Source: Nonlabens antarcticus (GTDB lineage Bacteria; Bacteroidota; Bacteroidia; Flavobacteriales; Flavobacteriaceae). From it: a DNA stretch of 64,000 nt. The stretch covers positions 62,001 to 126,000 of the forward strand of contig NZ_JADFCO010000060.1 of assembly GCF_015356755.1 (NCBI RefSeq), written 5' to 3'. The position numbers and the translations under genes were made by a program. The notes below the pieces were generated by a model. The model saw nothing but the letters and a program-made list of their open reading frames with translations. It did not search any database and was not told the DNA's origin. Shown piece by piece: positions 1,730 through 64,000 of the stretch; position 1 is the stretch's first letter; each line of letters opens with the position of its first letter.

Positions 1730-2397
1730 CCACGTAACTTGAACTTCATATAAGTAATAGGTTTGCCTATGTCAAGATACTGTTTTTCGTAGAAAGTCTG
1801 AGTTCCCACCACTTCGTCTGGCGCTTCTGTATTAGTGTAAATATTATGGTGCGCATATAAAATCTCTTCACCCATGCCCTCCAGAAGACCCAGCGTGTAG
1901 CCGTGCATGTATTCTGAGTCGGTTTTTAGGTGGATAATTCCGTCTGGTTTTAAGATCTGGCGGTATTTATCCAGGAATTCTGGATTTGTCATGCGGTGTT
2001 TTGTGCGCTTGTATTTGATTTGCGGGTCTGGAAAAGTGATCCATATTTCTGAAACTTCCGCTTTCGCGAAAGCGGAATCCACCAGCTCAATCTGGGTTCT
2101 AATAAATGCTACGTTGTCCAGACCTTCTTCAATCGCCGTTTTTGCACCACGCCAGAATCTTGCGCCCTTAATGTCGATTCCTATGAAATTGCGTTCTGGA
2201 TATTTACGAGCGAGTGCTACTGTATACTCACCCTTACCACAGCCCAATTCCAATGTAATGGGTTTATCATTCTTAAAGAATTTTGCCCATTTTCCTTTCC
2301 ACTCAAAATCCGCTACCATTTCCTCACGGGTGGGCTGGATCACGTTTGGGAAAGTTTCATTCTCCCTAAAACGCTTCAATTTATTTTTACTTCCCAA
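1726..2397 (-). CDS. trmB: tRNA (guanine-N7-)-methyltransferase
   Basis: A 223-residue class I SAM-dependent methyltransferase that makes m7G46 in the variable loop of tRNAs. The SAM motif LELGCGKGEY lies at residues 49-58 and GIDIKG follows at strand 2. The TrmB signature FPDP.IKYKRTKHR lies near residue 121, and a C-terminal TNTEAPD.V.GTQTFYE segment contacts tRNA. Length and motif order are normal. One oddity is the palindromic repeat at 2056-2077, which is translated as SAFAKAE (residues 108-114) just before the WITFPDP strand, at a point where other TrmB proteins are shorter or variable in my memory. First gene of the three-gene minus operon. Confidence 0.95.
   Translation of the reverse strand: MGSKNKLKRFRENETFPNVIQPTREEMVADFEWKGKWAKFFKNDKPITLELGCGKGEYTVALARKYPERNFIGIDIKGARFWRGAKTAIEEGLDNVAFIRTQIELVDSAFAKAEVSEIWITFPDPQIKYKRTKHRMTNPEFLDKYRQILKPDGIIHLKTDSEYMHGYTLGLLEGMGEEILYAHHNIYTNTEAPDEVVGTQTFYEKQYLDIGKPITYMKFKLRG
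2056..2077. repeat. Dispersed palindrome, copy 1 (22-bp perfect dyad, in trmB)
   Basis: Core CGCTTTCGCGAAAGCG, extended to 22 bp of perfect symmetry (outer arms TTC and GAA). Translated as AFAKA on the minus strand. Confidence 0.95.
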
Positions 2398-2428
2398 AAC
2401 AATTATTTAAAGGTTAGATAATCTACCG

Positions 2429-2462
2429 TTTGCCATACCGTTGATAGTAGGCAGTATCTTTA
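2429..2462 (+). promoter_or_regulatory. Putative flavobacterial promoter for the glycosyltransferase gene
   Basis: TTTG at 2429-2432 and TATCTTTA at 2455-2462 are separated by 22 bases. This is one mismatch from the Bacteroidota consensus TTTG-N17-23-TAnnTTTG. The ATG follows only 4 bases after the box, so the transcript would be nearly leaderless. Pattern match only. Confidence 0.35.
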
Positions 2463-2466
2463 TCGC

Positions 2467-5241: not shown

Positions 5242-5280
5242 AGGACTTTAAATGGACTGCTAATTTAGGTAAATCTACCT

Positions 5281-5367: not shown

Positions 5368-5383
5368 CGCTTTCGCGAAAGCG
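5368..5383. repeat. Dispersed palindrome, copy 2 (intergenic)
   Basis: Perfect 16-bp CGCTTTCGCGAAAGCG between the response regulator and the T9SS cargo gene. Confidence 0.95.
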
Positions 5384-10338: not shown

Positions 10339-10358
10339 TATTGTGTATTTTTACAGGT

Positions 10359-11360
10359 ATGATTCTAGTCACAGGAGGAACTGGTATGGTGGGCAGCCAC
10401 TTGTTATATCGCTTTCGCGAAAGCGAAATACCCATCAATGCCATATACAGAACAGAGGATTCTATCAATAAAACACGTGCCGTTTTTGACTCTTACCGAA
10501 AGGGTGATGCGGCTATGGTCAACGACATTAACTGGATTCAAGCAGATTTACTGGATATTCCCAGTATGGAAGATGCCATGGAAGGTATCTCTCAAGTTTA
10601 TCATTGTGCGGCTGCACTAGGCGATCTTTCGTTTGAGGAAATAACAAACATTAATGTTACTGGCACACAGCGCATTATTGATATTGCGATTGCCATGAAG
10701 GTGAAAAAATTCTGCTATGTAAGCAGTATTGCAACATTGGGAAACCCAATAGGAAGCAATCCCATAACCGAAGAGGATTTTTTCAATCCAGATGCTCTTA
10801 ATACAGATTATGCGCTGACAAAATATGGCGGAGAAATGGAGGTATGGCGCGCCTCGCAGGAAGGACTTAAGGTGGTAATCGTAAATCCAGGGGTCATCTT
10901 AGGAGAAGGTAATTACAAGGAAGGCAGCGGCCGGATCTTCTCAAAAACCTATCAAAGTCAGCCGTTTTACACGTCTGGCAGTACGGGAGTTGTTGATGTC
11001 GCAGATGTTGTTGAGATCATGGAACTCCTCATGAATTCTGAAATTTATAACGAACGCTACATTATCGTTGCAGAGAATCTAAGTTTCAAACCCCTTCTAA
11101 CTAATGTCGCTCGGGCTCTGGGTAAAAACCCTCCACAATTTAAAGTAAGAAAGTGGATGCTTTATGGGTTTTATGCTCTAGTAAAAATACCTATGATTTT
11201 AGGAGTTACTGAAGGTATATCTCGAGCTCAAATCAATACGTTAACTTCTGATTCAAACTATGATAATACCAAAATTAAAAAGGCACTAGGGTATAAATTC
11301 CGCACGGTGTCAAAAACAATAGACCGGATTTCCTTAAACTATTTAAAGAATCTAAATTAA
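10359..11360 (+). CDS. NAD-dependent epimerase/dehydratase (extended SDR)
   Basis: A 333-residue extended short-chain dehydrogenase. From ATG 10359 the Rossmann motif is immediate (MILVTGGTGMVG, GxxGxxG at residues 6-12). An ATG-less extension upstream is not needed. The catalytic pair is in DYALTKYGGE (YxxxK), preceded by the serine region CYVSSIATLG, and the substrate part carries VNPGVILGEG. It may act on a nucleotide sugar, a sterol-like or a dihydroflavonol-type substrate; the sequence does not decide. The dispersed palindrome is translated as RFRESE (18-23), in a surface helix right after the Rossmann glycine loop. Its stop shares bases with the stop of the convergent DUF4296 gene. Confidence 0.85.
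   Translation: MILVTGGTGMVGSHLLYRFRESEIPINAIYRTEDSINKTRAVFDSYRKGDAAMVNDINWIQADLLDIPSMEDAMEGISQVYHCAAALGDLSFEEITNINVTGTQRIIDIAIAMKVKKFCYVSSIATLGNPIGSNPITEEDFFNPDALNTDYALTKYGGEMEVWRASQEGLKVVIVNPGVILGEGNYKEGSGRIFSKTYQSQPFYTSGSTGVVDVADVVEIMELLMNSEIYNERYIIVAENLSFKPLLTNVARALGKNPPQFKVRKWMLYGFYALVKIPMILGVTEGISRAQINTLTSDSNYDNTKIKKALGYKFRTVSKTIDRISLNYLKNLN
10409..10426. repeat. Dispersed palindrome, copy 3 (in the epimerase gene)
   Basis: Core CGCTTTCGCGAAAGCG at 10410-10425 with one more symmetric pair. Translated as RFRES, a different frame from the copy in trmB. Confidence 0.95.
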
Positions 11361-13128: not shown

Positions 13129-13856
13129 AATTCCAACTTGCCCACAAGGCTTTTCAATTTCATACTTAGTATTCCCATCACGGCTTCTCCTATGATGCCA
13201 CTGCTCATTTTTGACTGACCTCTAGACCTGTCTGTAAATATTACTGGTACTTCTATAATCTTTGCCTTCAATAAATAGGCCTTAAATTTCATTTCTATCT
13301 GAAAAGCATAACCTACAAACCGTATTTTGTCAAGATTCAGCTTTCGCAAAAGCGAAACTCTATAACATACAAATCCAGCGGTTGTATCACTTATATTCAT
13401 TCTCGTTATGAGCTGCACATATTTTGAAGCTGTATAAGAAAGTAGTACTCGCGACATAGGCCAGTTTACCACATTCACACCGCGCACATATCTACTGCCT
13501 ATGGCAAGATCTGCCTGATGAATATGACAAGCATCGTGAAGAACTTGAATATCTGCTGGATTGTGAGAAAAATCGGCATCCATTTCAAAAAGATACTCAT
13601 AATTTCTTGCGAGCGCCCACTTAAATCCATGAATATAAGCGGTTCCCAATCCATTTTTCTTTTTCCTAACTTCTAAAAATAACCTGTCAGGATATTGCTG
13701 CATTTTCTCCCTGACAAGACCAGCAGTGCCATCTGGCGAATTATCGTCCACAATCAGCAAGTGAATTAGCGGGTAATCACGTAAAATAGCATCGACAATC
13801 AACGTGATATTCTCACGCTCCATATAGGTAGGAATAATGATTAAAGTGTTCTTCAT
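13125..13856 (-). CDS. Polyprenol monophosphomannose synthase-like glycosyltransferase (GT2)
   Basis: A 243-residue GT-A enzyme. It has IIIPTYMERENI at the N-terminus, VDDNSPDGTA (36-45), GLGTAYIHGF, the metal-binding DAD (93-95) in EMDADFSHNP, GSRYVRG, and DTTAGFVCYR near the acceptor site. These are the hallmarks of DPM1-type enzymes, which transfer mannose (or another hexose) from GDP-sugar to polyprenyl phosphate at the cytoplasmic membrane face. There is no C-terminal membrane segment, as in the short soluble class. First gene of the operon with pyrC and the DUF4296 lipoprotein. The sugar product could feed a DUF2723-type transferase such as the one at 61368, but that link is inference. 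Confidence 0.88.
   Translation of the reverse strand: MKNTLIIIPTYMERENITLIVDAILRDYPLIHLLIVDDNSPDGTAGLVREKMQQYPDRLFLEVRKKKNGLGTAYIHGFKWALARNYEYLFEMDADFSHNPADIQVLHDACHIHQADLAIGSRYVRGVNVVNWPMSRVLLSYTASKYVQLITRMNISDTTAGFVCYRVSLLRKLNLDKIRFVGYAFQIEMKFKAYLLKAKIIEVPVIFTDRSRGQSKMSSGIIGEAVMGILSMKLKSLVGKLEL
13340..13354. repeat. Decayed dispersed palindrome (in GT2 gene)
   Basis: GCTTTCGCAAAAGCG differs from the core by one base at the centre. Translated on the minus strand as SLLRK, which is the third possible frame. Confidence 0.7.
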
Positions 13857-15368: not shown

Positions 15369-15382
15369 GCTTTCGCGAAAGC
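15369..15382. repeat. Dispersed palindrome, copy 4 (intergenic)
   Basis: 14-bp perfect core GCTTTCGCGAAAGC between hemD and the pckA terminator. Confidence 0.93.
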
Positions 15383-17564: not shown

Positions 17565-18929
17565 ATGCGACACATACTGATTATAGGTGCTGGAAAATCA
17601 ACAGGAGTTCTTGTCGATTACCTTTTAAACAAATCAACGGAAGAAGAATTGCGACTTACCATCGCAGACAAGGATATATCACACGCCACAAGGTTATGCA
17701 ATAACCACCCTAATGCGACAGCCATTGAGCTGGATGTATTTGATCAGAAGGAAAGAACTGATCGATTAAAACAAGCAGATATTGTCATCTCTATGCTTCC
17801 AGCACGTTTTCATATTGAAGTAGCGAGAGATTGTGTTGAACTGGGAATTCACATGGTTACTGCTAGTTATGTAAGTCCAGAAATGCAGGAACTTGATAGT
17901 GAGGCAAAAAAGAAAAATCTTGTTCTTATGAATGAGATAGGTGTAGATCCAGGAGTAGATCACATGAGTGCCATGAGAGTTATTGATAAAATACGTGATA
18001 AAGGTGGTAAAGTGATACTCTTTGAATCCTTTACTGGTGGTCTTGTGGCTCCAGAAAACGACGATAATTTATGGAATTATAAATTCACATGGAACCCTAG
18101 AAATGTAGTTACGGCAGGACAGGGCGGAGCCGCAAAATTTATTCAAGAAGGGAAATTTAAATACATTCCCTACCACCGACTCTTTCGCAGGACAGAGTTT
18201 CTAGATGTGGAAGGTTATGGACGATTTGAAGCACTGGCAAACAGGAACAGTCTTAAGTATATGGAAGTTTACGGACTTGAAAATGTTTTGACCTTATATA
18301 GAGGGACGATGCGTCGTGTAGGTTTCAGCCGTGCGTGGAATATGTTTGTACAACTAGGAATTACAGATGACACGTATCAAATGGAGGATTCTAAAGACAT
18401 GAGTTATCGCGATTTCATAAATAGTTTTCTTCCCTACTCTCCTACTGATAGCGTGGAGTTAAAAATGCGTCTAGAACTCAAGATTGATCAAGACGACATC
18501 ATGTGGAGTAAGTTGTTAGAGCTCGACATCTTTAACGATGAGAAAAAAATAGGACTTGAAAACGCCACGCCAGCGCAGGCACTTCAAAAGATCCTAGAAG
18601 ATAAATGGACGCTACAACCAGGAGAGAAAGATATGATCGTGATGTATCACAAATTTGGATACGAGCTGGATGGTGAGAAGAATCAGATCGATAGCACTAT
18701 GGTATGTTTAGGAGACGGCAATGAACAAACCGCTATGGCAAAAACGGTAGGGCTACCAGTTGGAATGGCCGCATTGCGCATATTGAATGGCCAGATCAAA
18801 ACCTATGGTGTGCAAATCCCTATTCTAAAAGAGATTTATGAACCTATTTTAAAAGAGTTAGAGGCCTATGATATTCGCTTTCGCGAAATCGAAACGCCCT
18901 ATCTAGGGTACAATGCTTTACACCTTTAG
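17565..18929 (+). CDS. Saccharopine dehydrogenase family protein
   Basis: A 454-residue two-domain oxidoreductase. The Rossmann start MRHILIIGAGKSTGVLVDYLL is followed by ADIVISMLPARFH, GIHMVTASYVS and the substrate region NEIGVDPGVDHMSAM, with SFTGGLVAPENDDNLWNYKFTWNPRNVV. This is close to the saccharopine reductase/LYS9 type, which cleaves saccharopine to glutamate and aminoadipate semialdehyde. In Bacteroidota such genes are thought to belong to lysine catabolism. No partner gene is next door. A decayed dispersed palindrome (18874-18889) is translated RFREIE near the C-terminus. Its stop overlaps the stop of the convergent peptidase gene. Confidence 0.85.
   Translation: MRHILIIGAGKSTGVLVDYLLNKSTEEELRLTIADKDISHATRLCNNHPNATAIELDVFDQKERTDRLKQADIVISMLPARFHIEVARDCVELGIHMVTASYVSPEMQELDSEAKKKNLVLMNEIGVDPGVDHMSAMRVIDKIRDKGGKVILFESFTGGLVAPENDDNLWNYKFTWNPRNVVTAGQGGAAKFIQEGKFKYIPYHRLFRRTEFLDVEGYGRFEALANRNSLKYMEVYGLENVLTLYRGTMRRVGFSRAWNMFVQLGITDDTYQMEDSKDMSYRDFINSFLPYSPTDSVELKMRLELKIDQDDIMWSKLLELDIFNDEKKIGLENATPAQALQKILEDKWTLQPGEKDMIVMYHKFGYELDGEKNQIDSTMVCLGDGNEQTAMAKTVGLPVGMAALRILNGQIKTYGVQIPILKEIYEPILKELEAYDIRFREIETPYLGYNALHL
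18874..18891. repeat. Decayed dispersed palindrome (in saccharopine dehydrogenase family gene)
   Basis: CGCTTTCGCGAAATCG: left arm and centre intact, one base changed in the right arm. Translated RFREI, the same frame as copy 3. Confidence 0.75.
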
Positions 18930-19683: not shown

Positions 19684-21789
19684 CTACCTATCAAAGCTCC
19701 AGTTCATTATATCAGTGCGGATTCCAAAGTTGAACCAGGTAGTTGTCGCTTCTTGAACTACTGCGTTATCTACTTCTGGACTTATATTTCTATAAATAAA
19801 CTGACCGTAAACTTTCAAATTACTTGCTGGATTTATCAGGTAACCAGCTTCCAGCTCTCCATAAAAGAAAGGTGCGTTGTTTCCTTGAGCTACCATATTG
19901 CCATTGTCTGCAATGCGATCATCCTCGGTTCTGTAAATATTTCCTCCATAATAGGCGTTATCACCATTTGCAAGAATATCAAAACCACGCTCTCCTATAA
20001 TTGCCTTTGCAATTCCATACCAGCGATCCTGAGTATATCGACCTATCAAAATAGCTTCATAAAAACTCGCTCCCCATGGATGTGCTAGTGCTTGATTTGA
20101 ATTACCATAATTTAAAACTACCGTATTATGGCTGTAAGTGTAGGGGCGCACCCGGTTATATTCTGCCTGCAACATTAAGTTAGGTACGCTAAACGCGTTC
20201 TGATATTTTAATCCCAGCTGGTAACCGCTTTTATTTTGATAACCGCCGTTACCACTTGTTATGGCCTCACTAGAGAATTCATCAAGAACCAGCTGACCGT
20301 AGGCTGTAACCTGATCTGTAAGCTTATATTTTCCCGTAATTCCCAACAATGCATTTCCACCGCGTGAGCCGGTTTCTAGTTCTACGGTTTGATAAAATAT
20401 GAGTGGATTAACGTAATTGAAGTCAAAGCCGCGGCCATTATCATTTTGCCATAATACACTTTCAAAAAAGCCTAATGTCAATCTTTTAGTTGCATTCCAA
20501 CTCAAATAATGATGGGTCATATATTTTGTACGGAAGGAATCATCCGCAGTGACTTCAGATCTTACATCACGTAACGAGGTATAAAGTACCGTATAATCCA
20601 GTTTCCAAAATTTAGCGTTTAATTTAAAATACGGAAATGGCTGCGAATTATCACTAAGTACAAGCGACCTATATCCATCGCCTATAAAGTGCTGACCATG
20701 ACCTATCTGTAAATTAAAATATTTACTAGGTCTGTAATTCACATAACCAGTCGCTACTGGGTAATCATAGATGTTCTCACCGCCGTCTTCTGCAATACCG
20801 CGTCCAGGAACAATTCCTGGATTCCCACCATCTGGAGCTCGATTTGTGATTTCCCGATTAAAATACTCTGCAAAACGACCTTGAGATTCCTGGATGGTAG
20901 CGCCAAAAGTTAATTGTTTTCCTATGCCACCATTAATAGCAACCAATCGCGTGTTGTTAAAAGTGTTGGTATCTTCACCCGTATCCTTACCTAATTGCAA
21001 ATCAACCCCAGGATCTGCAACAAACCAGTAATCATCGCCAGCTACTTCAATAAAATGCTCGTTCCATAACTTACGACCTAACCAGCTTTCTGCATCTTTT
21101 AACAACGAGGATCGTTCTGTCTCTAGATCAAAATAATCACTGACATATTCAAATGTATATGGTTTTACTGCGGTGTGGGCATTACTCCCCACGCGATTCA
21201 TCGCCGCCTCATACCTGTGGTATCTCTGGTAAGAAAACGGAATCAAAGCATTAGACCGCAATTCTTGCCCGTTGTAACCTTTGGAATTTGTTTTGATGTA
21301 ATCGTTATTCGCTTTCGCGAAAGCGATATCATCCAATTTATTGTTTGCATCATTCTCATCTGTCTTATCACCGGTATCTATGCGGGTAAATGAACCACCT
21401 TGAGCCATAGGCACCTGGAAGTTTACGATAAATTGCATAAATGTGGGGTTGCCGTTGTACGTCGCTGGTTTAATCACGGGTAATTGCTCAAAGGCTGTAT
21501 TGAGCGCAGATTTTACAGTGGCACTCCTGGCGTCAAATAATATAGGAATAAAGGCACCGTTGCGATCGACTTCAAACCTTAAGGTGACCCTACTTGTTTC
21601 AGCAGCACTGGGATGCTGGTATTTTGAAAATAATTCTTGATACAACTGATCGTAAAAACAAGAGGCTAGTGCGCTGTCCTTAATAGAGTCACAAGTTGTA
21701 AAGCTAGGGAACTGCTCCACGTCAGTTTGTGCCGTTACACATACACTAAAAAATAGGGCCAAAAAAGCAATTCTAAATCTCATAAACAT
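19684..21789 (-). CDS. RemB-like outer-membrane protein (gliding motility / Wzi-like barrel)
   Basis: A 701-residue exported protein. The signal peptide (FRIAFLALFFSVCVTA) can start at ATG 21789 or two codons later at 21783. Residues ~25-130 resemble a TonB C-terminal-type domain: paired cysteines, then VTLRFEVDRNGAF and LPVIKPATYNGNP. The rest is rich in aromatic beta-strand patterns, with NLQIGHGQHFIGDGYRSLVLSD as in Wzi/capsule-assembly barrels, and ends in an aromatic strand. I recall the annotation gliding motility protein RemB for such proteins in Flavobacterium, where RemB helps mobile adhesin function. The dispersed palindrome is translated IAFAKAN. It follows two tonB genes on the same strand. 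Confidence 0.62.
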   Translation of the reverse strand: MFMRFRIAFLALFFSVCVTAQTDVEQFPSFTTCDSIKDSALASCFYDQLYQELFSKYQHPSAAETSRVTLRFEVDRNGAFIPILFDARSATVKSALNTAFEQLPVIKPATYNGNPTFMQFIVNFQVPMAQGGSFTRIDTGDKTDENDANNKLDDIAFAKANNDYIKTNSKGYNGQELRSNALIPFSYQRYHRYEAAMNRVGSNAHTAVKPYTFEYVSDYFDLETERSSLLKDAESWLGRKLWNEHFIEVAGDDYWFVADPGVDLQLGKDTGEDTNTFNNTRLVAINGGIGKQLTFGATIQESQGRFAEYFNREITNRAPDGGNPGIVPGRGIAEDGGENIYDYPVATGYVNYRPSKYFNLQIGHGQHFIGDGYRSLVLSDNSQPFPYFKLNAKFWKLDYTVLYTSLRDVRSEVTADDSFRTKYMTHHYLSWNATKRLTLGFFESVLWQNDNGRGFDFNYVNPLIFYQTVELETGSRGGNALLGITGKYKLTDQVTAYGQLVLDEFSSEAITSGNGGYQNKSGYQLGLKYQNAFSVPNLMLQAEYNRVRPYTYSHNTVVLNYGNSNQALAHPWGASFYEAILIGRYTQDRWYGIAKAIIGERGFDILANGDNAYYGGNIYRTEDDRIADNGNMVAQGNNAPFFYGELEAGYLINPASNLKVYGQFIYRNISPEVDNAVVQEATTTWFNFGIRTDIMNWSFDR
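21310..21325. repeat. Dispersed palindrome, copy 5 (in the RemB-like gene)
   Basis: Perfect 16-bp CGCTTTCGCGAAAGCG, translated AFAKA on the minus strand between the N-terminal domain and the barrel. Confidence 0.95.
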
Positions 21790-24447: not shown

Positions 24448-27400
24448 TTAATTACCAAAGGTATATCGCAAGGTGATACCACTTCTAATGGTGGTTTGAG
24501 GAAACGCTGTTGAAATCGCAAATTTAGAGAACGAGTGATCATAATAGAATAAGGCTTGGAATGCTTTGCTCAAAGCATATTCAGCAGTGAATTTTGCACC
24601 ATAAATTGTTTGACCAGCCGTCGCTTGACTGTTTTCTATATCGAGATATCGTATTACAGTAACATTATCCCGTACAGACCCATCCAGTCGCAGGTTCAAA
24701 TCACTTTTAATCACCTGACTTCTTCCACTAAATTTAGTGCGGAAGGGCACATCCTTAATCCGGTATCCTATTCCCAGCACTAATTCATTACCGCTAATTT
24801 CAGTTAAAAGATTATTATCAAAGCTCAAGGATATAGCGCGGTCTTTATTTAATTGCGCGGAAAGCGAAAATGAATTCTTCATTTCAAAATCTACTTTAAT
24901 CAATGGGTTGAAACGCTCTGCAAGATTCACGTTAAAAAAAAGGTCCTGGGCTTTAAAATCACCATTTTGATTGAGCGTCTGCTGGTTTTGCTGGGCATAA
25001 TCAAGACCACCGTTCCCTGGTGCAAAGTCTAAATTTGTCTGAAATCTATTTATGGTATAAGCAGCAACATAGCCATGTTGTAAAGAGAAACGTTTGAATC
25101 TTTTCTGGAACCATTTCATTTTCATTAACCCAGTGTACTTGATATCCCAGTTGGGCAACGGGATATCTTTAAAAGCATTGTTTTTCTGACTATCTGAATC
25201 CCGGCCTTCGTAAGCGGCTAGAAATGATGGCAGTAACACATTCTGACTGTTGCGACTAAACCCGTTTGGAAAACCATCCTCGTCCCTGGTGAAATTATTG
25301 TTACCGTAAAAATCCAACGCCAGTCGGTTTGCTACTTCCAGTCGGTTTTCTCTAAAATCGTTGAATACCGCAGAGTTATCAATACTATTGTCGCTGAACG
25401 CCGTACCTATCATAATCGTGGAAATACTAAAGTTTCCATAGGTCTGTGGGGTTAAAGACTGATATGTCAATTCATCTGGATCGACTCTAAAGTTTTCTGT
25501 AAAGGTCTCTGCATATTCGCGGTTAGACTTAATGTCAATTTTTAAATCTGGAAGTAAGTCAATGTTGAAGTTTACACTTAATTTCTTCCGCTCTACTTCT
25601 GTATATTGTTCGTTGAAATCTTGATATAAGGTCAACCAACCCTGTCTCGCTGCAAGGTCTCTAATTTCTGCCTGGCTTCCAAAAGTAAATCCTGTCGTAG
25701 GTTTCAATGTCCCTATAAACCCAACGCTAGGCGTATAGCCTGGAAGGAAAATACCATTAGTCTCCTCATAATTTACAGTAGCGCGTTTTATCGACGTTAA
25801 CACTCCTACCACCGTGTTGTAGGTTTTATTTGCAAAGTTCTCCTTAGGTATATCTACCTCATCCTGTTGCTTATCTGCGGTCGCGTTTCCGGCTTCTTCA
25901 TTTGCTTTAGGCAACCTGCTTCTGGACCTACTTCTAGAGCGTTGCTGTGCTTCCTTGCGAGCTGCAGCGCCAAATTTTTTCTTCTCTAAACCTACATAGG
26001 AATACAATTTATCTAAATCTAGATTTCCGTTAATACGGTGCGTGTTTGCATTCTGGATGCTATTTCCCAAGTTAGAAATACCATCCAGTTGCTGGAATTG
26101 CTGGGAGTTGCGCTGCCATTGAAAGTTTGCATCATAGGTATAGGTCGCTTTCGCGAAAGCGAGGAAAGGAAATTTCTCTAACGGTAATTCATAAGTAGCG
26201 GTAAATTTCTGAGTGTGGTAATCGGGAATCCCTTCATCTAGGAAGTTGCTCCACAGTGTGTAGTTCTCGTCAATCGTACTGTCTTGATCGTCAATATAAC
26301 TGCGCACCACACGATCATTATTTGCAGAAATATTCAGGTTGAGAGATCGGGTCAAATCCCAAGTTATTGCATATTGATTGCCCAGTGTAAAATTGCGGTT
26401 TGTCAATGGTGCAATAGCGATATTTTGTGCATCAGGAATTCCATCGCCGTCCAGATCCACGGGATTTGTATCCAGTTGAAGGTTCCTGAACGTCTGGGTA
26501 TTAAACTGGCGCACGATGGAACCGCTGGCGGTAAAATTATTAGGCAATAAGTTGAAGTTGATGTCTCTAATGAATTTGAAATAATCACCAGCTAGCGTTG
26601 TATCTGCTTCTTTAAAAGGTTCAAATGGCAACTGTGGAAATGCATAATTATAAGTAGCATTAACGTTTACCGCCTGGTTTTGGAATTGTTCAATCTCAAA
26701 ATTGCGTTGATCTGTTTGATTGTAAGAACCAGAAAATACAAAATTCTCTATATCGTACGGCATGGGCTTGCTTTCACCGGTTCTATCTTTACGTAAACCT
26801 ATCAAATTGATACTTTGGCGTCTGGTATAATCTTCTGACTGGTTTTTAATGGCATCACGCTCTTCATCACTAGCAGCATTAGATAGTCGCGTGTCTAACT
26901 CAATATCTTCAAACTGTGGATCGTACTGTGGTGTGACCGTCTCCTCTTCAATTCTATAAGAAACTGGGATATTCAATCCCCATTTTCTAGGAAACAATTG
27001 TCCAAAACCAATGCTTGTGGTAACATCGTATTGTGTGAGGTCTTCCCGACTGCGCTCGTTAGGACCTTGTTCAATAGACCCAAAACCGACGGTGCTTCTT
27101 CTACCGTTTGCGCTAATGGTGGCAAAATCTGCCACGTTTGCGTCCATATTTAAAACCGCGGCGTAACCTCCTTGATTCTTTAATCCAGACAGTCGCAATT
27201 CATTCAACCACACCTCACCATTTATCGTTCTGTTTGTGCTGTTGCGCACTCCCAGCATTAAGGAACGTACATCTCCAAAGTTAGGATTTCCCTTAATTCC
27301 ATAGATCTGCTGGTTGGGCTCTCCTGCAGAGTCTGGATCTAGATCTGCTTGATCAAAAAAGTTGATTTCACTTACTTGCAAGGAAGGATCGCTTAGAACC

Positions 27401-39974: not shown

Positions 39975-39990
39975 CGCTTTCGCGAAAGCG
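39975..39990. repeat. Dispersed palindrome, copy 8 (intergenic)
   Basis: Perfect 16-bp copy between the divergent ruvB and peroxiredoxin genes. Confidence 0.95.
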
Positions 39991-45140: not shown

Positions 45141-45893
45141 TTACTGGCCGTCGTTTGTTTGTTGATCTTGTGGGTCTGTCGGAGCGTTTCCTGCAGCAGT
45201 CGTCATAGTACTATCCGCAGCCACGTTTGTAGTTTCAGAAGAATCCGTTACTTGTTGCGCTGCTCCAGACTCTGGCATAACTATTTTACCATCTTTATCC
45301 ATTACTGGCTTTCTAGGAACTCCCATAAGGTCTGCCCTTAAAGCTTCTACAAAATGAACGATTTCCCAACGCTCTTCAATGCTGGTCTGTGAAGCATAGG
45401 ATCCCATATAATTAATACCATGATACATTACATGATAAATGGAACCTTCCGTAATCTCTCTTGCGTCATAACTAGGAACTCCTAAGATCTTCTCGGTCTC
45501 CACTAAGTAACCTACACCGTTACCTTTAGCTCCGTGACATATAGCACAATAGATGCCATATAGGGCTTGTCCATTAGACAGGTGATCTTCCGTTAAGGGA
45601 ACAGGGTTGATTAAGTTCGCTTTCGCGGAAGCGTACCCGTCATTATCATCCTCGTACTCATAAGGCATCCACCCTCTGGAAACAGTTCCATCTACCGGTT
45701 TTTGCGCTTCCATGTTTCCAGGAAAGATTGCTCCTTCCTGATAAGCCTCATAACCTACAGATTCATACATATTAGGAAAATACTGAAAACTGCGATTGGA
45801 TTTTGCATCCACTTCTTTTGTACCGTCATCCCCACATGAAATGAGAAGCAAGGTACAAGCAGCATATATGAATGGTTTCAAATAAATATTCAT
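45141..45893 (-). CDS. actE: Alternative complex III monohaem cytochrome c subunit ActE
   Basis: A 250-residue lipoprotein cytochrome. The signal peptide ends LLLISC with lipidated C20. The single haem site is C116-A-I-C-H120 in YGIYCAICHGAKGNG, with a later Met-rich segment (VMYHGINYMGSYASQ) offering the sixth ligand. The C-terminal ~50 residues are low complexity. In the Flavobacterium ACIII structure ActE passes electrons outward from ActA. A decayed copy of the dispersed palindrome is translated YASAKAN upstream of the haem motif. The stop codon of actD touches its start. Confidence 0.92.
   Translation of the reverse strand: MNIYLKPFIYAACTLLLISCGDDGTKEVDAKSNRSFQYFPNMYESVGYEAYQEGAIFPGNMEAQKPVDGTVSRGWMPYEYEDDNDGYASAKANLINPVPLTEDHLSNGQALYGIYCAICHGAKGNGVGYLVETEKILGVPSYDAREITEGSIYHVMYHGINYMGSYASQTSIEERWEIVHFVEALRADLMGVPRKPVMDKDGKIVMPESGAAQQVTDSSETTNVAADSTMTTAAGNAPTDPQDQQTNDGQ
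45618..45633. repeat. Decayed dispersed palindrome (in actE)
   Basis: CGCTTTCGCGGAAGCG, one base from the core. Read ASAKA instead of AFAKA on the minus strand. Confidence 0.8.
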
Positions 45894-47893: not shown

Positions 47894-50800
47894 TTATACG
47901 TTTCTTACCTTAACCTGATACATCACGTTAGGCTCAGTTCCTACTTCTTCCAACAAGTGATACATACGATCTTGTTGTTTCACTTCGAAAATCTCAGACT
48001 CCTTGTCATTAATATCACCGAATGTAATGGCTCCATTATAACAGGCATTTGAACAAGCCGTAGCAAATTCTCCATCCTCGATCATTCTACCGTCTTTCTT
48101 AGCTTCTAGAATCGTCATTTGAGTCATCTGAATACACATAGAACATTTTTCCATTACCCCACGGGAACGAACGGTAACATCTGGATTGATTACCATGCGA
48201 CCTAGATCATTATTCATGTGGTAATCAAACTCATCATTACCATTATATAAGAACCAGTTGAATCTACGTACTTTATAAGGACAGTTGTTAGCACAATATC
48301 TTGTACCTACACAACGGTTATAAATCATGTGATTCTGACCTTGACGACTGTGTGATGATGCTGCAACAGGACAAACTGTTTCACATGGTGCGTGGTTACA
48401 GTGCTGACACATAATAGGCATAAATGCCACTTGTGGTTCGTCCGCTGGAATTTCCAATTCACCGAATCCTCCTAAAGAACCATTATCACCGAATAGCCCA
48501 GAAAAACCATCTTTCTTAGATTCATCATCTTCAAAACTATCTGTGGAAGAGTAATATCTATCGATACGCAACCAGTGCATATCTCTTGAACGTCTTACTT
48601 CTGTTTTACCAACGACAGGAACATTATTTTCTGCATGACATGCTACTACACAAGCACCACAACCGGTACAAGCGTTTAAGTCAATTGACATATTGAAGTG
48701 ATGCCCTACAGAGCGGTCAAAACTTTCCCAGAGATCAACATCTGGAGATGTTACGGGTGTTCCTATATGATTCAAGGAAACCTCGATCATAGGATTGAAC
48801 TCGTCTCTATTACCTTTTAAATAAGTTCCCATGTCAGTCTCGCGAATAATATCACGACCCATCATGGTATTTTGTAGTTGTGTACAAGCAAACTCATGAA
48901 CGCCACCTGCAACTTCAACACTTACAGATTGAACTGTCCTTCCGTTCTTGAAGAAAGGAAAAGCGTTAACACCGGTTTGCATTTCTTCTTGTATTGAAGA
49001 AGTCTGACCATATCCTAAAGCAAGACCAATAGTTCCTACTGCTTGACCAGGCTGTATTATCGCTGGGATCTTACGTTCCACTCCATCCATTCTAACGATC
49101 GCATAAGAACCATCCAATGCTCCATTTGCAACGTTGAAATTCTCAATCCCTAAATTGTCAGCATCTTTTTGGGAAACTGTAATGTAATTATCCCAAGTTG
49201 TTCTAGTAATAGGATCAGGAAGTTCTTGCAACCATGGGTTATTTGCTTGCGTTCCATCACCCATGGAAATCTTAGTGTATAACACTAATTCGTAATCACC
49301 AGTAGCTTTTGAAGCACCCAGATCGCGCAATGCAGCTGCATTGTTTATTGTTGGGACTTCTGATTCTGTACCTGAGGTTTCAGAAAGAGTAGCGGTGTAA
49401 AATCCATCCTGTAACGACTGATTCCAGCTGGAACCATTTGCAGTGGAACTTGTTTTTAGGTAATCTTTATATGTTTCATTGCTACCAGACCAGACTAACA
49501 AAGAGTCTTGCAACTGGCGCGTATCAAACAACGTATTGATCGTAGGTTGCATCAAGGAAACAGTTCCTTTCTTCATTTCTACATCACCCCAAGATTCTAA
49601 ATAATGCGGTGTAGTAGCTACATAATCAGACTGCTCTGCTGTAGCATCTAGACGTGATGCTAATGATACCTTGAGTGGTACATTCTTCCACGCTTTCGCG
49701 AAAGCTTCATTGTCGTCATAACTATAAAAAGGATCTACACCTGCAACAAAAACAGCACCTACAGCACCACTTTCCATGTCTTTAACCAGCTGGTTAACCG
49801 CCCGGCGGCTACCTTGTCTCGTAAGAATAGGATTAGCAGTATCAATAATAGTACTACCTAGTTGCTCGTTAATTTCAAGTGCTAATTGTTGTGCTCCTTG
49901 ATCTGGAAGACCGCAAAGAACAACGCCTTTGCTTCCTGCACGACGCAATTTTTGCGCCGCTTGTTCAACAGCTTTAGAAACTTTATCAGACAGGTTACTA
50001 TTTGCAGAACCACCTACAACTTTACTGTAAAGGGCTGCAATAATTTGTTTTTGCTCGGTAGGTGTTACAGGATAACGTTGGTCTGCATTTGCACCAGCCA
50101 GAGACATATTAGACTCAAACTGCACGTGATGTGACATTTTACCATTCTTAGGAACGCGAGATTGTGCATAGTTGGTATCAAAACTACCACCTTGCCAGTC
50201 TCCTACAAAATCTGCTCCTATACTAACGATGCATTCTGCATCCTTAAAATCATAATCTGCAAGACCGCGCTGGAAGTATTTAGCCTCAAAGGCATCCAGT
50301 GCAGCATCTTCACCAACAGTGTCGTAGGTTACCTGACGAACATTAGGATACGCAGCTTTGAAGTCTTCCATCAATTTTGCTGTTGATGGACTGGCAAAAG
50401 TCTGTGTTAGAAAAACGATCTGCTTTCCTGCATTAGCATTTAACTGCTGACGCACTTCCTTATCTAATTCTGACCAGGTGGATTCTTTTCCTTTTACTAG
50501 TGGGGTTTTAAGACGATTATTGTCATACAAACCTAAAACAGATGCATGGACACGGGCGCTGGCATTACCGCGAGCAGCAATATCTCTATTACCTTCAATT
50601 TTAATAGGTCTTCCCTCACGAGTCTTAACAAGAACACTTGCAAAATCATACCCGTTAGCAATGGTAGTCGCATAATAGTTTGCGATTCCTGGAATAAGCC
50701 TTTCTGGTTGATTCACATAAGGAACAGAGTTGATAACAGGACCTTCACAGGCAGCAAGTGATGCTGCAGCGGTACTGAAACCTACGTATTTCAAGAAATC

Positions 50801-50959
50801 ACGACGTGTGGTGCTGGAAGATTCCATCGCCTTATCGTCTCCTAGAAATTCTTCAGTTGGAACAGGCGTTGCAAACTCGTTTTGCTCGAGACTTTTGATC
50901 ATCTCATTGCTCGTATCGAGTTGCGCAGTACTTTTCCAGTATTTTTTAGTAGTAGCCAT
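47894..50959 (-). CDS. actB: Alternative complex III subunit ActB (iron-sulphur, molybdopterin-fold)
   Basis: A 1021-residue exported subunit. A twin-arginine signal (R52-R53 in TTRRDFLKYVG) is followed by a lipobox with C71 (SLAAC), so it is probably folded in the cytoplasm and lipid-anchored outside. The large middle part resembles molybdopterin oxidoreductases but lacks the cofactor residues, as known for ActB. The C-terminal part carries iron-sulphur ligands in four groups: CTGCGACVVAC, CQHCNHAPCETVC, CVGTRYCANNC and CSMCIQ...CSNAC. These hold three 4Fe-4S and one 3Fe-4S cluster in homologues. A dispersed palindrome is translated EAFAKAW in the middle domain. Confidence 0.96.
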   Translation of the reverse strand: MATTKKYWKSTAQLDTSNEMIKSLEQNEFATPVPTEEFLGDDKAMESSSTTRRDFLKYVGFSTAAASLAACEGPVINSVPYVNQPERLIPGIANYYATTIANGYDFASVLVKTREGRPIKIEGNRDIAARGNASARVHASVLGLYDNNRLKTPLVKGKESTWSELDKEVRQQLNANAGKQIVFLTQTFASPSTAKLMEDFKAAYPNVRQVTYDTVGEDAALDAFEAKYFQRGLADYDFKDAECIVSIGADFVGDWQGGSFDTNYAQSRVPKNGKMSHHVQFESNMSLAGANADQRYPVTPTEQKQIIAALYSKVVGGSANSNLSDKVSKAVEQAAQKLRRAGSKGVVLCGLPDQGAQQLALEINEQLGSTIIDTANPILTRQGSRRAVNQLVKDMESGAVGAVFVAGVDPFYSYDDNEAFAKAWKNVPLKVSLASRLDATAEQSDYVATTPHYLESWGDVEMKKGTVSLMQPTINTLFDTRQLQDSLLVWSGSNETYKDYLKTSSTANGSSWNQSLQDGFYTATLSETSGTESEVPTINNAAALRDLGASKATGDYELVLYTKISMGDGTQANNPWLQELPDPITRTTWDNYITVSQKDADNLGIENFNVANGALDGSYAIVRMDGVERKIPAIIQPGQAVGTIGLALGYGQTSSIQEEMQTGVNAFPFFKNGRTVQSVSVEVAGGVHEFACTQLQNTMMGRDIIRETDMGTYLKGNRDEFNPMIEVSLNHIGTPVTSPDVDLWESFDRSVGHHFNMSIDLNACTGCGACVVACHAENNVPVVGKTEVRRSRDMHWLRIDRYYSSTDSFEDDESKKDGFSGLFGDNGSLGGFGELEIPADEPQVAFMPIMCQHCNHAPCETVCPVAASSHSRQGQNHMIYNRCVGTRYCANNCPYKVRRFNWFLYNGNDEFDYHMNNDLGRMVINPDVTVRSRGVMEKCSMCIQMTQMTILEAKKDGRMIEDGEFATACSNACYNGAITFGDINDKESEIFEVKQQDRMYHLLEEVGTEPNVMYQVKVRNV
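49692..49705. repeat. Dispersed palindrome, copy 9 (in actB)
   Basis: 14-bp perfect core GCTTTCGCGAAAGC, translated AFAKA. Confidence 0.93.
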
Positions 50960-52496: not shown

Positions 52497-52512
52497 CGCT
52501 TTCGCGAAAGCG
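52497..52512. repeat. Dispersed palindrome, copy 10 (intergenic)
   Basis: Perfect 16-bp copy, 20 bases before the SPOR gene start and between divergent transcripts. Confidence 0.95.
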
Positions 52513-58460: not shown

Positions 58461-58688
58461 TGTATGGTTCCTCATTCATGATTTATAGTGAAAACAGTTT
58501 CAGAATATTATCTTAACCTTTGCATGGAATGTAGTTCTAAAAATGAAGTTACACCGCTTTCGCGAAAGCAAAATTATTACAAAACCTCTAACAATTTAAT
58601 CTATAATTTAATGGTCCAAACAACTTTACTGGGCCTCTAGTTCTGAATTAAAAATTTATTAAAGTTTAGAAATGAGTGAAAAATAATA
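58461..58688. other. Intergenic region upstream of the phosphodiesterase gene
   Basis: Contains the dispersed palindrome copy 11 at 58556-58569. Otherwise AT-rich with no gene. The phosphodiesterase promoter should lie here, but no clear consensus was found. Confidence 0.4.
58556..58569. repeat. Dispersed palindrome, copy 11 (intergenic)
   Basis: 14-bp perfect core GCTTTCGCGAAAGC. Confidence 0.93.
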
Positions 58689-61113: not shown

Positions 61114-61146
61114 AAAAAATCCCGACTCTAAAAAAGAGCCGGGATT
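61114..61146 (-). terminator. Terminator of the tRNA-Gln transcript
   Basis: AATCCCG with CTC pairs with GAG and CGGGATT around an A-rich loop. On the minus strand it ends in TTTTTTATTTT. It starts 7 bases after the tRNA 3' end. Confidence 0.9.
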
Positions 61147-61152
61147 CAACAG

Positions 61153-61223: not shown

Positions 61224-61233
61224 ATTGCGGGTG

Positions 61234-61263
61234 CAAATTTAGAACAATTCTGATTTTATGCAA
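61234..61263 (-). promoter_or_regulatory. Promoter of tRNA-Gln
   Basis: TTG (61263-61261), 19 bases, TAAATTTG (61241-61234) on the minus strand, a full consensus match ending 11 bases before the tRNA. Confidence 0.6.
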
Positions 61264-61367
61264 CTCTTTTTAAAAAATTTATTTCTGTAAAATGAAAATC
61301 GACTTGTAGCGTTGTATTTACCAGTGTCCTTATATAATTACTACTTTAGCAGCTGTTAAAAATACCT

Positions 61368-64000
61368 ATGAAATTAAGTTATAACAATCTCAATAAAATC
61401 CTAGGATGGACGGTCTTCCTTATCGCTCTAACTATTTACTGGCTTACCGTAGAACCTACCGTAAGTTTCTGGGATGCTGGAGAATACATCACAACATCCG
61501 TTAAGCTTGAGGTGGGTCACCCACCAGGAGCACCACTCTATCAAATGATGATTGCAACAGCCGCCATATTTGCAACAGAGGCGACAAAAATTGCCTACAT
61601 GGTCAATCTCATGTCTGCTTTCTCGAGCGCGCTTACCATTTTATTTATGTTTTGGTCGCTCACTCTGCTCTTAAAAAGACATATTTTAAAAGATAGACTG
61701 GATGAAACCATGATTTTAGGTGCAGCTTTCATAGGGTCGCTAGCGTTTACCGTTTCTGATAGTTTCTGGTTCAATGCCGTTGAAGCAGAAGTTTACGCAC
61801 CCGCTTCACTCATTATGAGCAGCATGTTTTATCTGGGATTGCTGTGGGAACGCGATATGATGCTCCCTCGCGGCAACCGCTGGCTCATTCTCATGTCGTT
61901 CATCATAGGACTCTCTTTTGGAGTTCACTTTTTAGGAATTCTTACTATTCCCGCTATTGGAATGCTATGGTATTTTAGACACTACAGAAAAATCACTCCG
62001 CTTAACTTTATTGTCGCATTGGTTTCTGTAACTGCCGTACTCCTCTTTGTTTTCAAACTATTGTTGCCTTACACACTTAGTATTTTTGGTTATTTAGAGG
62101 TGTTTTTTGTAAATGAAATAGGCTTGCCGTTCAATAGCGGTACCATCATCGCATTCTTACTTATTGTAGCCGTATTTATCGGATTAATTTCGCTTTCGCG
62201 AAAGCGGAACAAACCTCTTTTAAACACCGTGACATTATGTATCATGTTTGTATTGATAGGGTTTTCCAGTTGGACGATGTTGCCTATAAGAGCTAATGCG
62301 GGAACTCCCATAAATGAAAACAACCCTAACGATGCTAGGGCGCTACTCTCTTATTACAATAGGGAGCAATACCCAGCTCCAGCACTTTTCTACGGTGAAT
62401 CTTTTACAGATATGTACTCTGGACTTGATCCAGATGAGCCCTACATAGATGAAAAACCAAAATATGAGCGCAATTATGAGACTGGTGAATATGTAATTGT
62501 GAATGAGTATAAAAATGCTGTACAGAATACAAATAATGCGCATAAAGGTGTTTTTCCTCGCATGACAGATGCCAGCCGTGCTGGGAACTATGTCGATTTT
62601 ATGGGCGGTCTAGAGTATGAGATCAAACCAGGTTACAAGGGCAATCAGGAATTATTGAGTGTTCTAGATGATTATGAGCGGCAGTTTGAACGCGGCAGGA
62701 TCACCTCAGATGAATATATTAAGGTTATATCATCACTAGGAGAAGCTATTGATATTAAAAAACCTTCATTTGCTCAAAACCTAAACTATCTCGCGAGCTT
62801 TCAAATAAGCTACATGTATATGCGTTATTTCATGTGGAATTTTGCAGGAAAACAAAACGATGTTCAAGGGACCTGGGATCGATTTGATGGTAACTGGATG
62901 AGCGGGATTACATTTATTGATTCTTGGCGTTTAGGATCTCAAGATGATTTGAGCCAGGACATGCTCCATAACAAAGGACGTAATTTTTATTTCTTCCTTC
63001 CCTTACTATTAGGCGTTTTAGGAGCTGTATTCCATGCTAAAAATGATCCGAAATCGTTTTTTGTAACGTTGATGCTATTTTTATTCACGGGATTAGCGGT
63101 CATTATTTACCTCAACCAGAGCATGTTCCAGGTGCGAGAACGTGATTATGCCTATGTAGGATCCTTTTTAGTATTTGCCATGTGGATAGGAATAGGTGTT
63201 TATGCTCTTTATGATGCGATACGAGAGAAGGTAAAGAGCCCGGTCATGAAGTATGTTACTCTAGGAATATGCTTTCTTGCCGTACCCTTCTTGATGGGGT
63301 TCCAGAATTGGGACGATCACGATAGGTCTGAAAAGTACACCGCACTTTCCAGCGCTAAAAAATACTTAGACAGTTGTTTACCTAATGCGCTCATATTTAC
63401 CATAGGCGATAATGATACTTTCCCACTGTGGTACGCACAGGAAGTGGAAGGTTATCGTACTGACGTTCGCATAGTTTGTACTTCTCTGTTAAGTACAGAC
63501 TGGTATATGGATGACATGAAAAAACAGGCGTATGAAAGTGCTCCAGTTCCCTCTACTTTAACTCATGACAAGTATGTATATGGGACCCGAGACGCTTTAT
63601 GGTATGCCGAAAAAGAGCGTATTCAAACTAGATTGAGAGAGGCACAAGGAGATCCTAATTATGTATTTCCAGACACTATGAATCTGGATAAATGGATGGA
63701 ATGGGTTGCTAGTGAAAGTAAGCTTACTCAAGAATTGATGCGCAATGATCATAGCGAGCACACCTTCCCAACTCGATCCATACGTATTCCTGTAAACAAG
63801 GAAGCCGTCCTTAAAAACGGAGTTGTTGCCGCAAAGGATGCTGATAAAATTGTGGATGATATAGTCATTACTATTAATTCAAATCTAGTTTACAAAAACC
63901 GCATGTTCATGCTAGACATCATTAATGCAAATAATTGGGAACGTCCTATTTATTTCTCTGGTGGTGCCTTCGGTGATGAGGATTATATCTGGATGAAAGA
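61368..64000 (+). CDS. DUF2723 integral membrane protein (partial, runs off the right edge)
   Basis: The first 877 residues of a large membrane protein; the full family length is roughly 1000-1100. From ATG 61368 (MKLSYNNLNKILGWTVFLI) the protein has WLTVEPTVSFWDAGEYITTSVKLEVGHPPGAPLYQM, where DAGE and GHPPG are the conserved opening of DUF2723. About ten membrane segments follow, with FWFNAVEAEVYA in the second block. A large soluble part then includes a second hydrophobic block and ANNWERPIYFSGG near the edge. The family looks like a GT-C glycosyltransferase (protein O-mannosyltransferase-like), with the acidic DAGE as catalytic site. It could use polyprenyl-phosphate sugar from a GT2 enzyme such as that at 13.1 kb. 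A palindrome copy is translated SLSRKR. Confidence 0.9.
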   Translation, partial: MKLSYNNLNKILGWTVFLIALTIYWLTVEPTVSFWDAGEYITTSVKLEVGHPPGAPLYQMMIATAAIFATEATKIAYMVNLMSAFSSALTILFMFWSLTLLLKRHILKDRLDETMILGAAFIGSLAFTVSDSFWFNAVEAEVYAPASLIMSSMFYLGLLWERDMMLPRGNRWLILMSFIIGLSFGVHFLGILTIPAIGMLWYFRHYRKITPLNFIVALVSVTAVLLFVFKLLLPYTLSIFGYLEVFFVNEIGLPFNSGTIIAFLLIVAVFIGLISLSRKRNKPLLNTVTLCIMFVLIGFSSWTMLPIRANAGTPINENNPNDARALLSYYNREQYPAPALFYGESFTDMYSGLDPDEPYIDEKPKYERNYETGEYVIVNEYKNAVQNTNNAHKGVFPRMTDASRAGNYVDFMGGLEYEIKPGYKGNQELLSVLDDYERQFERGRITSDEYIKVISSLGEAIDIKKPSFAQNLNYLASFQISYMYMRYFMWNFAGKQNDVQGTWDRFDGNWMSGITFIDSWRLGSQDDLSQDMLHNKGRNFYFFLPLLLGVLGAVFHAKNDPKSFFVTLMLFLFTGLAVIIYLNQSMFQVRERDYAYVGSFLVFAMWIGIGVYALYDAIREKVKSPVMKYVTLGICFLAVPFLMGFQNWDDHDRSEKYTALSSAKKYLDSCLPNALIFTIGDNDTFPLWYAQEVEGYRTDVRIVCTSLLSTDWYMDDMKKQAYESAPVPSTLTHDKYVYGTRDALWYAEKERIQTRLREAQGDPNYVFPDTMNLDKWMEWVASESKLTQELMRNDHSEHTFPTRSIRIPVNKEAVLKNGVVAAKDADKIVDDIVITINSNLVYKNRMFMLDIINANNWERPIYFSGGAFGDEDYIWMK
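62191..62206. repeat. Dispersed palindrome, copy 12 (in the DUF2723 gene)
   Basis: Perfect 16-bp copy, translated LSRKR in a loop after a membrane segment. Together with copies 1 and 3 it shows that all three frames are used. Confidence 0.95.

What the first reader, a model, noticed from the sequence alone, without database searches (positions are those of the whole stretch)
2056..62206. A 16-bp palindrome, CGCTTTCGCGAAAGCG, recurs every few kb across the whole window
Twelve copies of the perfect 14-base core GCTTTCGCGAAAGC (nine extend to 16 bases) occur at 2056, 5368, 10409, 15369, 21310, 26146, 31642, 39975, 49692, 52497, 58556 and 62191. Decayed copies lie at 13340, 18874 and 45618. By chance a given 14-mer is expected about 0.0002 times in 64 kb. 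Gaps run from 2 to 8 kb. Copies lie in genes and between them, with no association to strand or gene type. The element is fully palindromic, so it is not directional like KOPS, Chi or DNA-uptake words; it recalls HIP1 of cyanobacteria. It could be a nucleoid-protein site, a methylation or repair target, or a fossil mobile palindrome.
Basis: partly seen in the sequence, partly recalled or inferred. Interest (0 to 1): 0.75.

Follow-up and report, generated by a model that had tools for sequence, protein, structure and literature searches.

The report
Evenly spaced palindrome across whole genomes
A 16-letter DNA palindrome is repeated about 600 times, roughly every five thousand letters, through the genome of a flavobacterium, and nearly every copy compared with a related species has stayed exact while the DNA around it changed, so it is probably a signal, not yet understood, by which the cell handles its own DNA.

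Summary
GCTTTCGCGAAAGC occurs 12 times in the window, 611 times in the 3.27-Mb genome (Markov expectation 0.002-0.012) and 288-857 times in each of 23 genus genomes. Two other genera have 408 and 857 copies; one named MAG has 224 with up to one mismatch.

Copies repel each other (4 of 122 gaps under 1 kb, 27.5 expected), are spread evenly along a chromosome, are threefold enriched between genes, and are kept: 20 of 21 aligned copies are exact between species 77% identical, against 4.6% of random 14-mers. On each strand about 30 nt 5' of the palindrome is poor in C. Phage contigs, at least one with an integrase, carry it. The results do not fit parS/Noc, a mobile palindrome or codon bias.

Function is unproven. 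I favour a two-way own-DNA signal for end processing and recombination, Chi-like in action (0.33), over an uptake signal (0.25) or nucleoid-protein lattice (0.22). E. coli Chi shows neither the repulsion nor the flank, which counts against my choice.

The parts
2060..2073 (.). palindrome copy 1 (16-mer), inside a TrmB-type gene (1726-2397, -), frame AFAKA
5369..5382 (.). copy 2 (16-mer), between divergent genes
10411..10424 (.). copy 3 (16-mer), near the start of a + strand gene (ORF 10341-11360), frame FRES
15369..15382 (.). copy 4 (14-mer core), between convergent genes
21311..21324 (.). copy 5 (16-mer), inside gene 19684-21789 (-), frame AFAKA
26147..26160 (.). copy 6 (16-mer), inside the giant gene 24448-31722 (-), frame AFAKA
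31643..31656 (.). copy 7 (16-mer), in the N-terminal, signal-peptide-like end of the giant gene, frame AFAKA
   Evidence: signal peptide judged by eye
39976..39989 (.). copy 8 (16-mer), between divergent genes, beside ruvB (38888-39913, -)
49692..49705 (.). copy 9 (14-mer core), inside gene 47894-50959 (-) with 4Fe-4S and molybdopterin-oxidoreductase domains; same codons in 21 of 22 genus genomes
52498..52511 (.). copy 10 (16-mer), between divergent genes
58556..58569 (.). copy 11 (14-mer core), between divergent genes
62192..62205 (.). copy 12 (16-mer), inside a large + strand gene that runs out of the window, frame LSRK
13340..13353 (.). one-mismatch copy GCTTTCGCAAAAGC
18877..18890 (.). one-mismatch copy GCTTTCGCGAAATC
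45619..45632 (.). one-mismatch copy GCTTTCGCGGAAGC

Best explanation
SHOWN by sequence: a selected, sequence-specific, symmetric DNA signal, namely a 14-16 bp palindrome inside about 80 bp of strand-asymmetric context (C-poor on the 5' side on each strand), kept about once every 4-5 kb along the chromosome and also kept at matching places in related phages. INFERRED: it marks the cell's own DNA for end processing and recombination and works like a two-way Chi. A helicase-nuclease (candidate: the AddAB-type enzyme found in every genome examined) running in from a broken end on either side meets the palindrome, stops degrading and leaves a 3' single-stranded tail. That tail is the C-poor, G/T-richer 5' flank, suited to RecA loading and little able to pair with itself. 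Being a palindrome, one copy serves breaks on both sides, and a second copy within a kilobase adds little, which would give the repulsion. Incoming fragments that carry the signal survive and recombine, which would help to keep and spread it. No step of the inferred part was tested.
For: Site-by-site constraint: 20 of 21 aligned copies exact between species 77% identical, random 14-mers 4.6%; 21 of 22 genus genomes at one site; divergence 10-50 bp away is like the rest. Symmetric, strand-asymmetric 5' flank in both coding strands, intergenic copies, other rich lineages and viral contigs: read here as a single-strand step. Repulsion below 1 kb, even density in 30 stretches of one chromosome. 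Density 611 per 3.27 Mb, 0.19 per kb, like the 0.2 per kb given for Chi in E. coli and in lambdoid phages without recombinases (PMC3784561, passages). Phage contigs carry copies 3-5 kb apart, two at matching places in phages about 65% identical. AddA-type protein in 23 of 23 genus genomes (two partial, in fragmented drafts); AddB-type in 22 of 22 genomes tried. The half site GAAAGCG(G) resembles AGCGG, the B. subtilis AddAB Chi (PMC4824097, passages): a lead only.
Against: In 300 kb of E. coli K-12, 75 Chi octamers show no repulsion (18 gaps under 1 kb, 16.1 expected), no flank bias and many one-mismatch forms (601). Chi words known to me are not palindromes. AddAB is present in poor genera too, AddAB trees do not single out the rich genera, and SAT51, whose copies are thinner, keeps an open AddB. 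The AddB label is weak: below the NCBIfam cut-offs and no PDB hit by profile. No sign of a recombination hotspot in divergence near sites. At least one site-bearing phage contig has an integrase, so phage copies could have been kept while resident in a chromosome.
Confidence: 0.33

Rival explanations
1. DNA-uptake signal (like USS/DUS): a surface receptor prefers DNA that carries the palindrome, and biased uptake plus recombination spreads and repairs copies (molecular drive).
For: Uptake sequences are evenly spaced, over-represented in non-coding DNA, sit in permissive coding places and have less conserved flanks (PMC1939737, passages); here repulsion, threefold intergenic enrichment and a flank signature. 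One-mismatch copies are over-represented too (16 against 0.06 for control palindromes). Depleted in a recent-looking island of G008 (2 copies in 36 kb).
Against: The same paper states that these sequences are not palindromes. The strand-asymmetric flank is not explained by binding of duplex DNA. G001's unshared 34 kb holds 9 copies, no depletion, though that stretch may simply lie beyond the region fetched from G008. Competence was not examined.
Confidence: 0.25
2. Lattice for a dimeric DNA-binding protein (nucleoid organiser, condensin loader or sliding clamp) that loads at each palindrome and covers a few kilobases.
For: Palindrome suits a homodimer; even spacing and uniform density; enrichment between genes, most often divergent ones (23 of 54 classified).
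Against: No genus-wide second ParB-family protein (16 of 18 genus genomes examined have one match, G000 and G017 have one or two more of about 600 aa). No gap or excess in any of 30 chromosomal stretches that would mark Ter or origin. A duplex binder should not care about C against G over 30 bp on one strand. Phage copies are not predicted.
Confidence: 0.22
3. HIP1-like methyltransferase or other epigenetic site.
For: Palindrome; HIP1 is linked to orphan methyltransferases (PMC4390886, abstract and one passage).
Against: The inner TCGCGA is at expectation outside the sites (O/E 0.99) and CGCG is mildly rare (O/E 0.72); a whole 14-16 bp word and 30-nt flanks are kept, longer than usual methyltransferase words (recalled).
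Confidence: 0.1
4. Mobile or fossil palindrome, or a by-product of codon or mutation bias.
For: High copy number, and low copy numbers in many other genera.
Against: The low-copy stretches examined lie mostly in efflux genes shared between genera (8 of 10 stretches). Exact copies outnumber one-mismatch copies (128 to 16). Flanks differ from copy to copy. At the site examined in detail other genera have a different peptide, not a gap. Markov expectation 0.002-0.012. A RAYT-type transposase was not searched for.
Confidence: 0.03

Closest known systems
HIP1 (GCGATCGC) of cyanobacteria
   Same: A perfect palindrome repeated genome-wide, function not settled (PMC4390886, abstract and one passage).
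   Different: Other sequence, 14-16 instead of 8 bp, about 0.19 per kb, repulsion below 1 kb, strand-asymmetric flanks; no sign of selection on the inner hexamer. HIP1 itself was not measured here.
Chi sites of RecBCD/AddAB (E. coli GCTGGTGG, B. subtilis AGCGG)
   Same: Density near 0.2 per kb, presence in phages (PMC3784561, passages), AddAB-type enzyme in the genus.
   Different: Palindromic, evenly spaced, C-poor flanks, few near copies; E. coli Chi has none of these.
USS/DUS uptake sequences (Pasteurellaceae, Neisseriaceae)
   Same: Even spacing, intergenic preference, permissive coding places, extended less conserved flanks (PMC1939737, passages).
   Different: Those are 9-10 bp cores and not palindromes; flank asymmetry here is on both arms.
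parS (ParB) and Noc sites
   Same: 14-16 bp palindromic recognition site (recalled for parS and Noc).
   Different: Hundreds of copies spread evenly, no cluster or gap seen in 30 stretches, no genus-wide ParB paralogue.

Membership tests
HIP1 | The word GCGATCGC in cyanobacteria | tested here: not met
   Another word, in a family that includes loci named Flavobacteriaceae; the host's own name is not given.
HIP1 | Inner words targeted by orphan methyltransferases | tested here: inconclusive
   TCGCGA O/E 0.99 and CGCG O/E 0.72 outside sites; methyltransferases and methylation not examined.
Chi | Over-represented genome word at about 0.2 per kb | tested here: met
   611 in 3.27 Mb against 0.002-0.012 expected.
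Chi | Acts in one orientation (asymmetric word) | tested here: not met
   Perfect palindrome. Works-like-Chi is not excluded, is-a-Chi is.
Chi | Recognised by a RecBCD/AddAB enzyme | not testable with these tools
   AddA-type protein in 23 of 23 genus genomes; recognition needs biochemistry.
USS/DUS | Non-palindromic core | tested here: not met
   stated for these sequences in PMC1939737.
USS/DUS | Even spacing and non-coding preference | tested here: met
USS/DUS | Raises DNA uptake | not testable with these tools
   Needs transformation assays.
parS/Noc | Sites cluster near the origin (parS) or are missing near Ter (Noc) | tested here: not met
   1-9 copies in each of 30 stretches of 20 kb of G005, no trend; origin and Ter were not located.
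parS/Noc | A ParB-family reader beyond the ordinary ParB | tested here: not met
   One match in 16 of 18 genus genomes examined. That the ordinary ParB reads this site was not excluded.
REP/RAYT-type mobile palindrome | Copies arise by insertion and share more than the core | tested here: not met
   Flanks differ; the site in the 47894-50959 gene aligns with other residues in other genera (one site). RAYT transposase not searched.

The most novel reading that the evidence does not exclude
A symmetric, evenly spaced own-DNA signal with its own reader, unknown so far, that evolved in (or passed between) several lineages of Flavobacteriaceae. It acts on chromosome and phage DNA alike through a single-strand step and serves both directions with one palindrome: a functional counterpart of Chi or uptake signals built on a different principle.
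Probability: 0.45. Interest if true: 0.9.

Novelty: new variant of a known kind. Interest (0 to 1): 0.78.

Why it matters
About 600 copies per genome under visible selection make a strong natural experiment for what repeated genome signals do. The role of HIP1 is not settled (PMC4390886 abstract), and the listing of the one search that named Bacteroid- together with Chi and AddAB (15 of 2,982 papers shown) showed no Chi word for that phylum. The site-by-site constraint, the one-kilobase repulsion and the strand-asymmetric flank are measurable handles that can separate recombination, uptake and nucleoid models. If it is a bidirectional recombination signal, one palindrome doing the work of two oriented sites would be new.

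Tried and rejected
parS idea: in other genera the palindrome clusters within tens of kb, often as a pair 933 bp apart. Ten stretches fetched and read: eight hold efflux genes shared between genera (RND transporters, outer-membrane efflux proteins, metal P-type ATPases; ten proteins from six of the ten stretches, L018 and L021-L025, were checked, the rest recognised by eye); two (L024 and L025) hold other genes. So horizontal transfer is likely, not a partition site. ParB/Noc duplication: not found (18 of 23 genus genomes).

An error of mine, corrected: one search seemed to show one of two alternative positions per genome in the 47894-50959 gene. This was strand orientation of the loci; the site is at the same codons in 21 of 22 genomes. 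An early notebook entry still carries the wrong reading.

Phage and plasmid records searched with a short composed query gave 17 and 8 records with weak matches (E-value 2 or worse).

AddAB as the determinant by presence or by tree: present in rich and poor genera, trees unresolved for the question. The own genus has a longer stem in AddA (2.0) and AddB (1.26) than in a control protein (0.43), roughly 1.5-2 times faster by eye; suggestive at best. Recombination-hotspot signature in divergence near sites: none. PDB search with the AddB profile: no hit. Rfam: only a tRNA in the window.

Literature: GCTTTCGCGAAAGC, an 18-mer around it and CTTTCGCGAAAG are in no paper of the held library; ten papers hold TTTCGCGAAA, none on this by title. 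Eight further searches showed no report of such an element in Flavobacteriaceae in their capped listings. Subscription journals are mostly not held.
Full report
CHECK. In the whole genome (3.27 Mb, 66 contigs) there are 611 exact copies and none of the reversed control. Markov models of order 1 to 5, built from genus sequence with the sites masked, expect 0.002-0.012. All 23 genomes of the genus that are held have 288-857 copies.

DISTRIBUTION. Of 299 genomes drawn from the family (three of them of the own genus), 61 have a copy. Apart from the own genus only G211 (408) and G227 (857), of two other genera, are rich; the other 56 have 1-19. Of 296 genomes drawn from the phylum, 16 have a copy and only the own genome has more than four. 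A named record, MAG 'Cytophagaceae bacterium SAT51', has 224 exact or one-mismatch copies. In 221 kb of it, mostly stretches chosen because they hold copies, the spectrum is 23 exact, 6 with one and 15 with two mismatches, so its set is thinner or decaying. In poor genera the copies often cluster; eight of the ten stretches I read hold efflux genes shared between genera, so transfer from a rich lineage is likely. Eighty loci around tyrosyl-tRNA synthetase from named Bacteroidota records (some titles bear other names) hold no exact copy and five one-mismatch copies, four of them in SAT51.

ANATOMY. Among 169 copies in 840 kb of genus sequence (four species; G001 and G008 are 95% alike, so not independent), 55 lie between genes, which make up 10.7% of bases; for the own genome alone 15 of 44 (p about 1e-4 already for 14 of 44). 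Gene calls were a simple longest-ORF rule. Copies in genes favour the frame reading AFAKA (64 of 114; FRES 27, LSRK 23), several in N-terminal ends that look like signal peptides. On the strand that enters the palindrome 5' to 3', the nearest bases tend to TTC and the next 25-30 nt are poor in C. In intergenic copies of the own genus C is 0.03 and G 0.31 at positions 4-12, then C 0.09 (13-20), 0.12 (21-30) and 0.18 (31-40), against 0.17 for each of C and G at random intergenic places. Copies in genes show it on both strands, as do G227 and viral contigs and, more weakly, G211 and SAT51. Because the complement holds on the other side, the whole element of about 80 bp is symmetric.

SPACING. In 140 kb of the own genome the coefficient of variation of gaps is 0.42 (0.97 expected for random placement; 0 of 5000 simulations as low). 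In the relatives it is weaker by this measure because of large site-free islands: G005 p 0.037, G001 p 0.059, G008 p 0.86. The repulsion is clearer: in 600 kb of G005, 4 of 122 gaps are under 1 kb, 27.5 expected, minimum of 5000 simulations 12; none of 161 gaps in five sequences is under 1014 bp. Thirty 20-kb stretches of G005 hold 1-9 copies each, variance 2.87 on a mean of 4.77, with no trend along the chromosome. A 36-kb set of unshared stretches in G008, one with a phage-type integrase, holds 2 copies where about 8 are expected (p 0.015). G001's unshared 34 kb, all at the end of the stretch fetched, holds 9 and shows no depletion. Stretches of 24 kb (G001) and 30 kb (G008) with SusC/SusD-type and uronate-breakdown genes are free of copies (genes named in G001).

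CONSTRAINT. Of 27 copies in the 140-kb own contig, 21 lie in DNA aligned with G005 (77% identical); 20 are exact and the 21st has one mismatch; random 14-mers are perfectly kept in 4.6% (six unaligned copies are not counted). Other pairings at 76-77%: 20 of 23, 20 of 21, 20 of 25, 27 of 29, 27 of 31. Bases 10-50 away diverge like the rest. In the gene at 47894-50959 the site is exact at the same codons in 21 of 22 genus genomes, with one mismatch in the other; the 23rd genome gave no match. Its codons GCT, TTC and GCG are invariant in 22 of 22, while 5.6% of 604 nearly invariant amino-acid columns have an invariant codon; the 12 other-genus genomes compared, G211 and G227 included, have another peptide there. 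So at this site the DNA word, not the protein, is conserved. My earlier reading that the site had two alternative positions was an orientation error.

OTHER LINEAGES. G211 and G227 group together in three quick protein trees, the own genus apart; with SAT51 added the AddB branching is unresolved and a single origin is not ruled out. Of four site-bearing G211 genes with an own-genus counterpart, three have the site at the same codon; of five in G227, none. Shared descent, transfer or convergence at easy places all remain possible.

PHAGES. A viral-contig scan with the 16-mer gave 41 stretches, some of high G+C and probably unrelated. Ten proteins from five of the contigs were scanned first: one contig has portal, protease-like, major-head and tape-measure proteins, another a terminase. 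One 29.6-kb record has four exact copies and one with a mismatch, 3.1-5.1 kb apart. In two phages about 65% identical, two copies sit at matching places. Near-identical phages also show a one-mismatch form at one of these. Five relatives with 41-43% portal identity have no copy. One site-bearing contig (L195), 98.6% identical over 5.3 kb to one of these phages, carries an integrase, so at least that one is probably temperate. Hosts are not known.

MECHANISM. The shown part is a selected symmetric signal with strand-asymmetric flanks that works at a scale of kilobases and is also kept in phage DNA. The flank suggests a single-strand step, the palindrome service in both directions, and the phage copies an effect on resident DNA in general. 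Chi-like control of an AddAB-type enzyme fits all three. AddA is in 23 of 23 genus genomes (two partial) and matches solved AddA and RecB by sequence; AddB-type proteins are in 22 of 22 genomes tried, though they score below NCBIfam cut-offs and have no PDB hit by profile. Against it, the E. coli Chi yardstick shows none of the special features, and AddAB does not mark out the rich genera. Uptake signals share the spacing and placement (PMC1939737, passages) but not the palindrome. A nucleoid lattice fits palindrome and spacing but not the flank. I therefore give 0.33, 0.25 and 0.22, with 0.10 for methylation, 0.03 for mobility or bias, and the rest for the unforeseen.

MEMBERSHIP. I file it under no known family: HIP1, Chi, USS/DUS, parS/Noc and REP each fail at least one tested feature. 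By inference it works most like Chi or an uptake signal. Papers: passages of PMC4390886, PMC4060949, PMC4824097, PMC3784561, PMC5443536 and PMC1939737 were seen; the others only as search listings with the start of their abstracts. The link of GT-rich flanks to Chi in E. coli is recalled (PMC3763553's abstract start, says RecA prefers TGG repeats); the features of parS, Noc and REP are recalled.

Noticed in passing
L016-L023 (G108, G099, G236, G122, G132, G222, G033), e.g. L017:9498-10715: Closely similar efflux gene sets (RND transporter, outer-membrane efflux protein, metal P-type ATPases) in several genera of the family carry palindromes at the same places, in several as a pair 933 bp apart inside one outer-membrane efflux gene; they look like recent transfers from a palindrome-rich lineage.
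   Followed up: partly
L289-L308, L321-L325 (AddAB regions): AddA and AddB change fast in this genus (AddA 40-76% identical within it for complete copies) and sit on long stems compared with a control protein.
   Followed up: partly
L304 and L307 (G009, G003): In these two genus members AddA is not beside AddB as in the other AddB regions fetched; it lies elsewhere on the chromosome.
   Followed up: partly
G000:C60:5326-5760 and G000:C66:20046-20462: Two extra ParB-family proteins of about 600 aa in the own genome, one with a counterpart score in G017.
   Followed up: no
L147 / G614 (MAG SAT51): A thinner palindrome set with many two-mismatch copies: a possible case of the signal being lost or being built up.
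   Followed up: partly
L215 and L208 (viral contigs): Phages of unknown host whose palindromes lie 4.3-5.1 kb apart, in or near structural genes.
   Followed up: partly
window 24448-31722 (-): A very large gene (about 2,400 aa) with a signal-peptide-like start near ruvB-type and malic-enzyme genes; it may be the gliding/secretion protein SprA (recalled, not tested).
   Followed up: no
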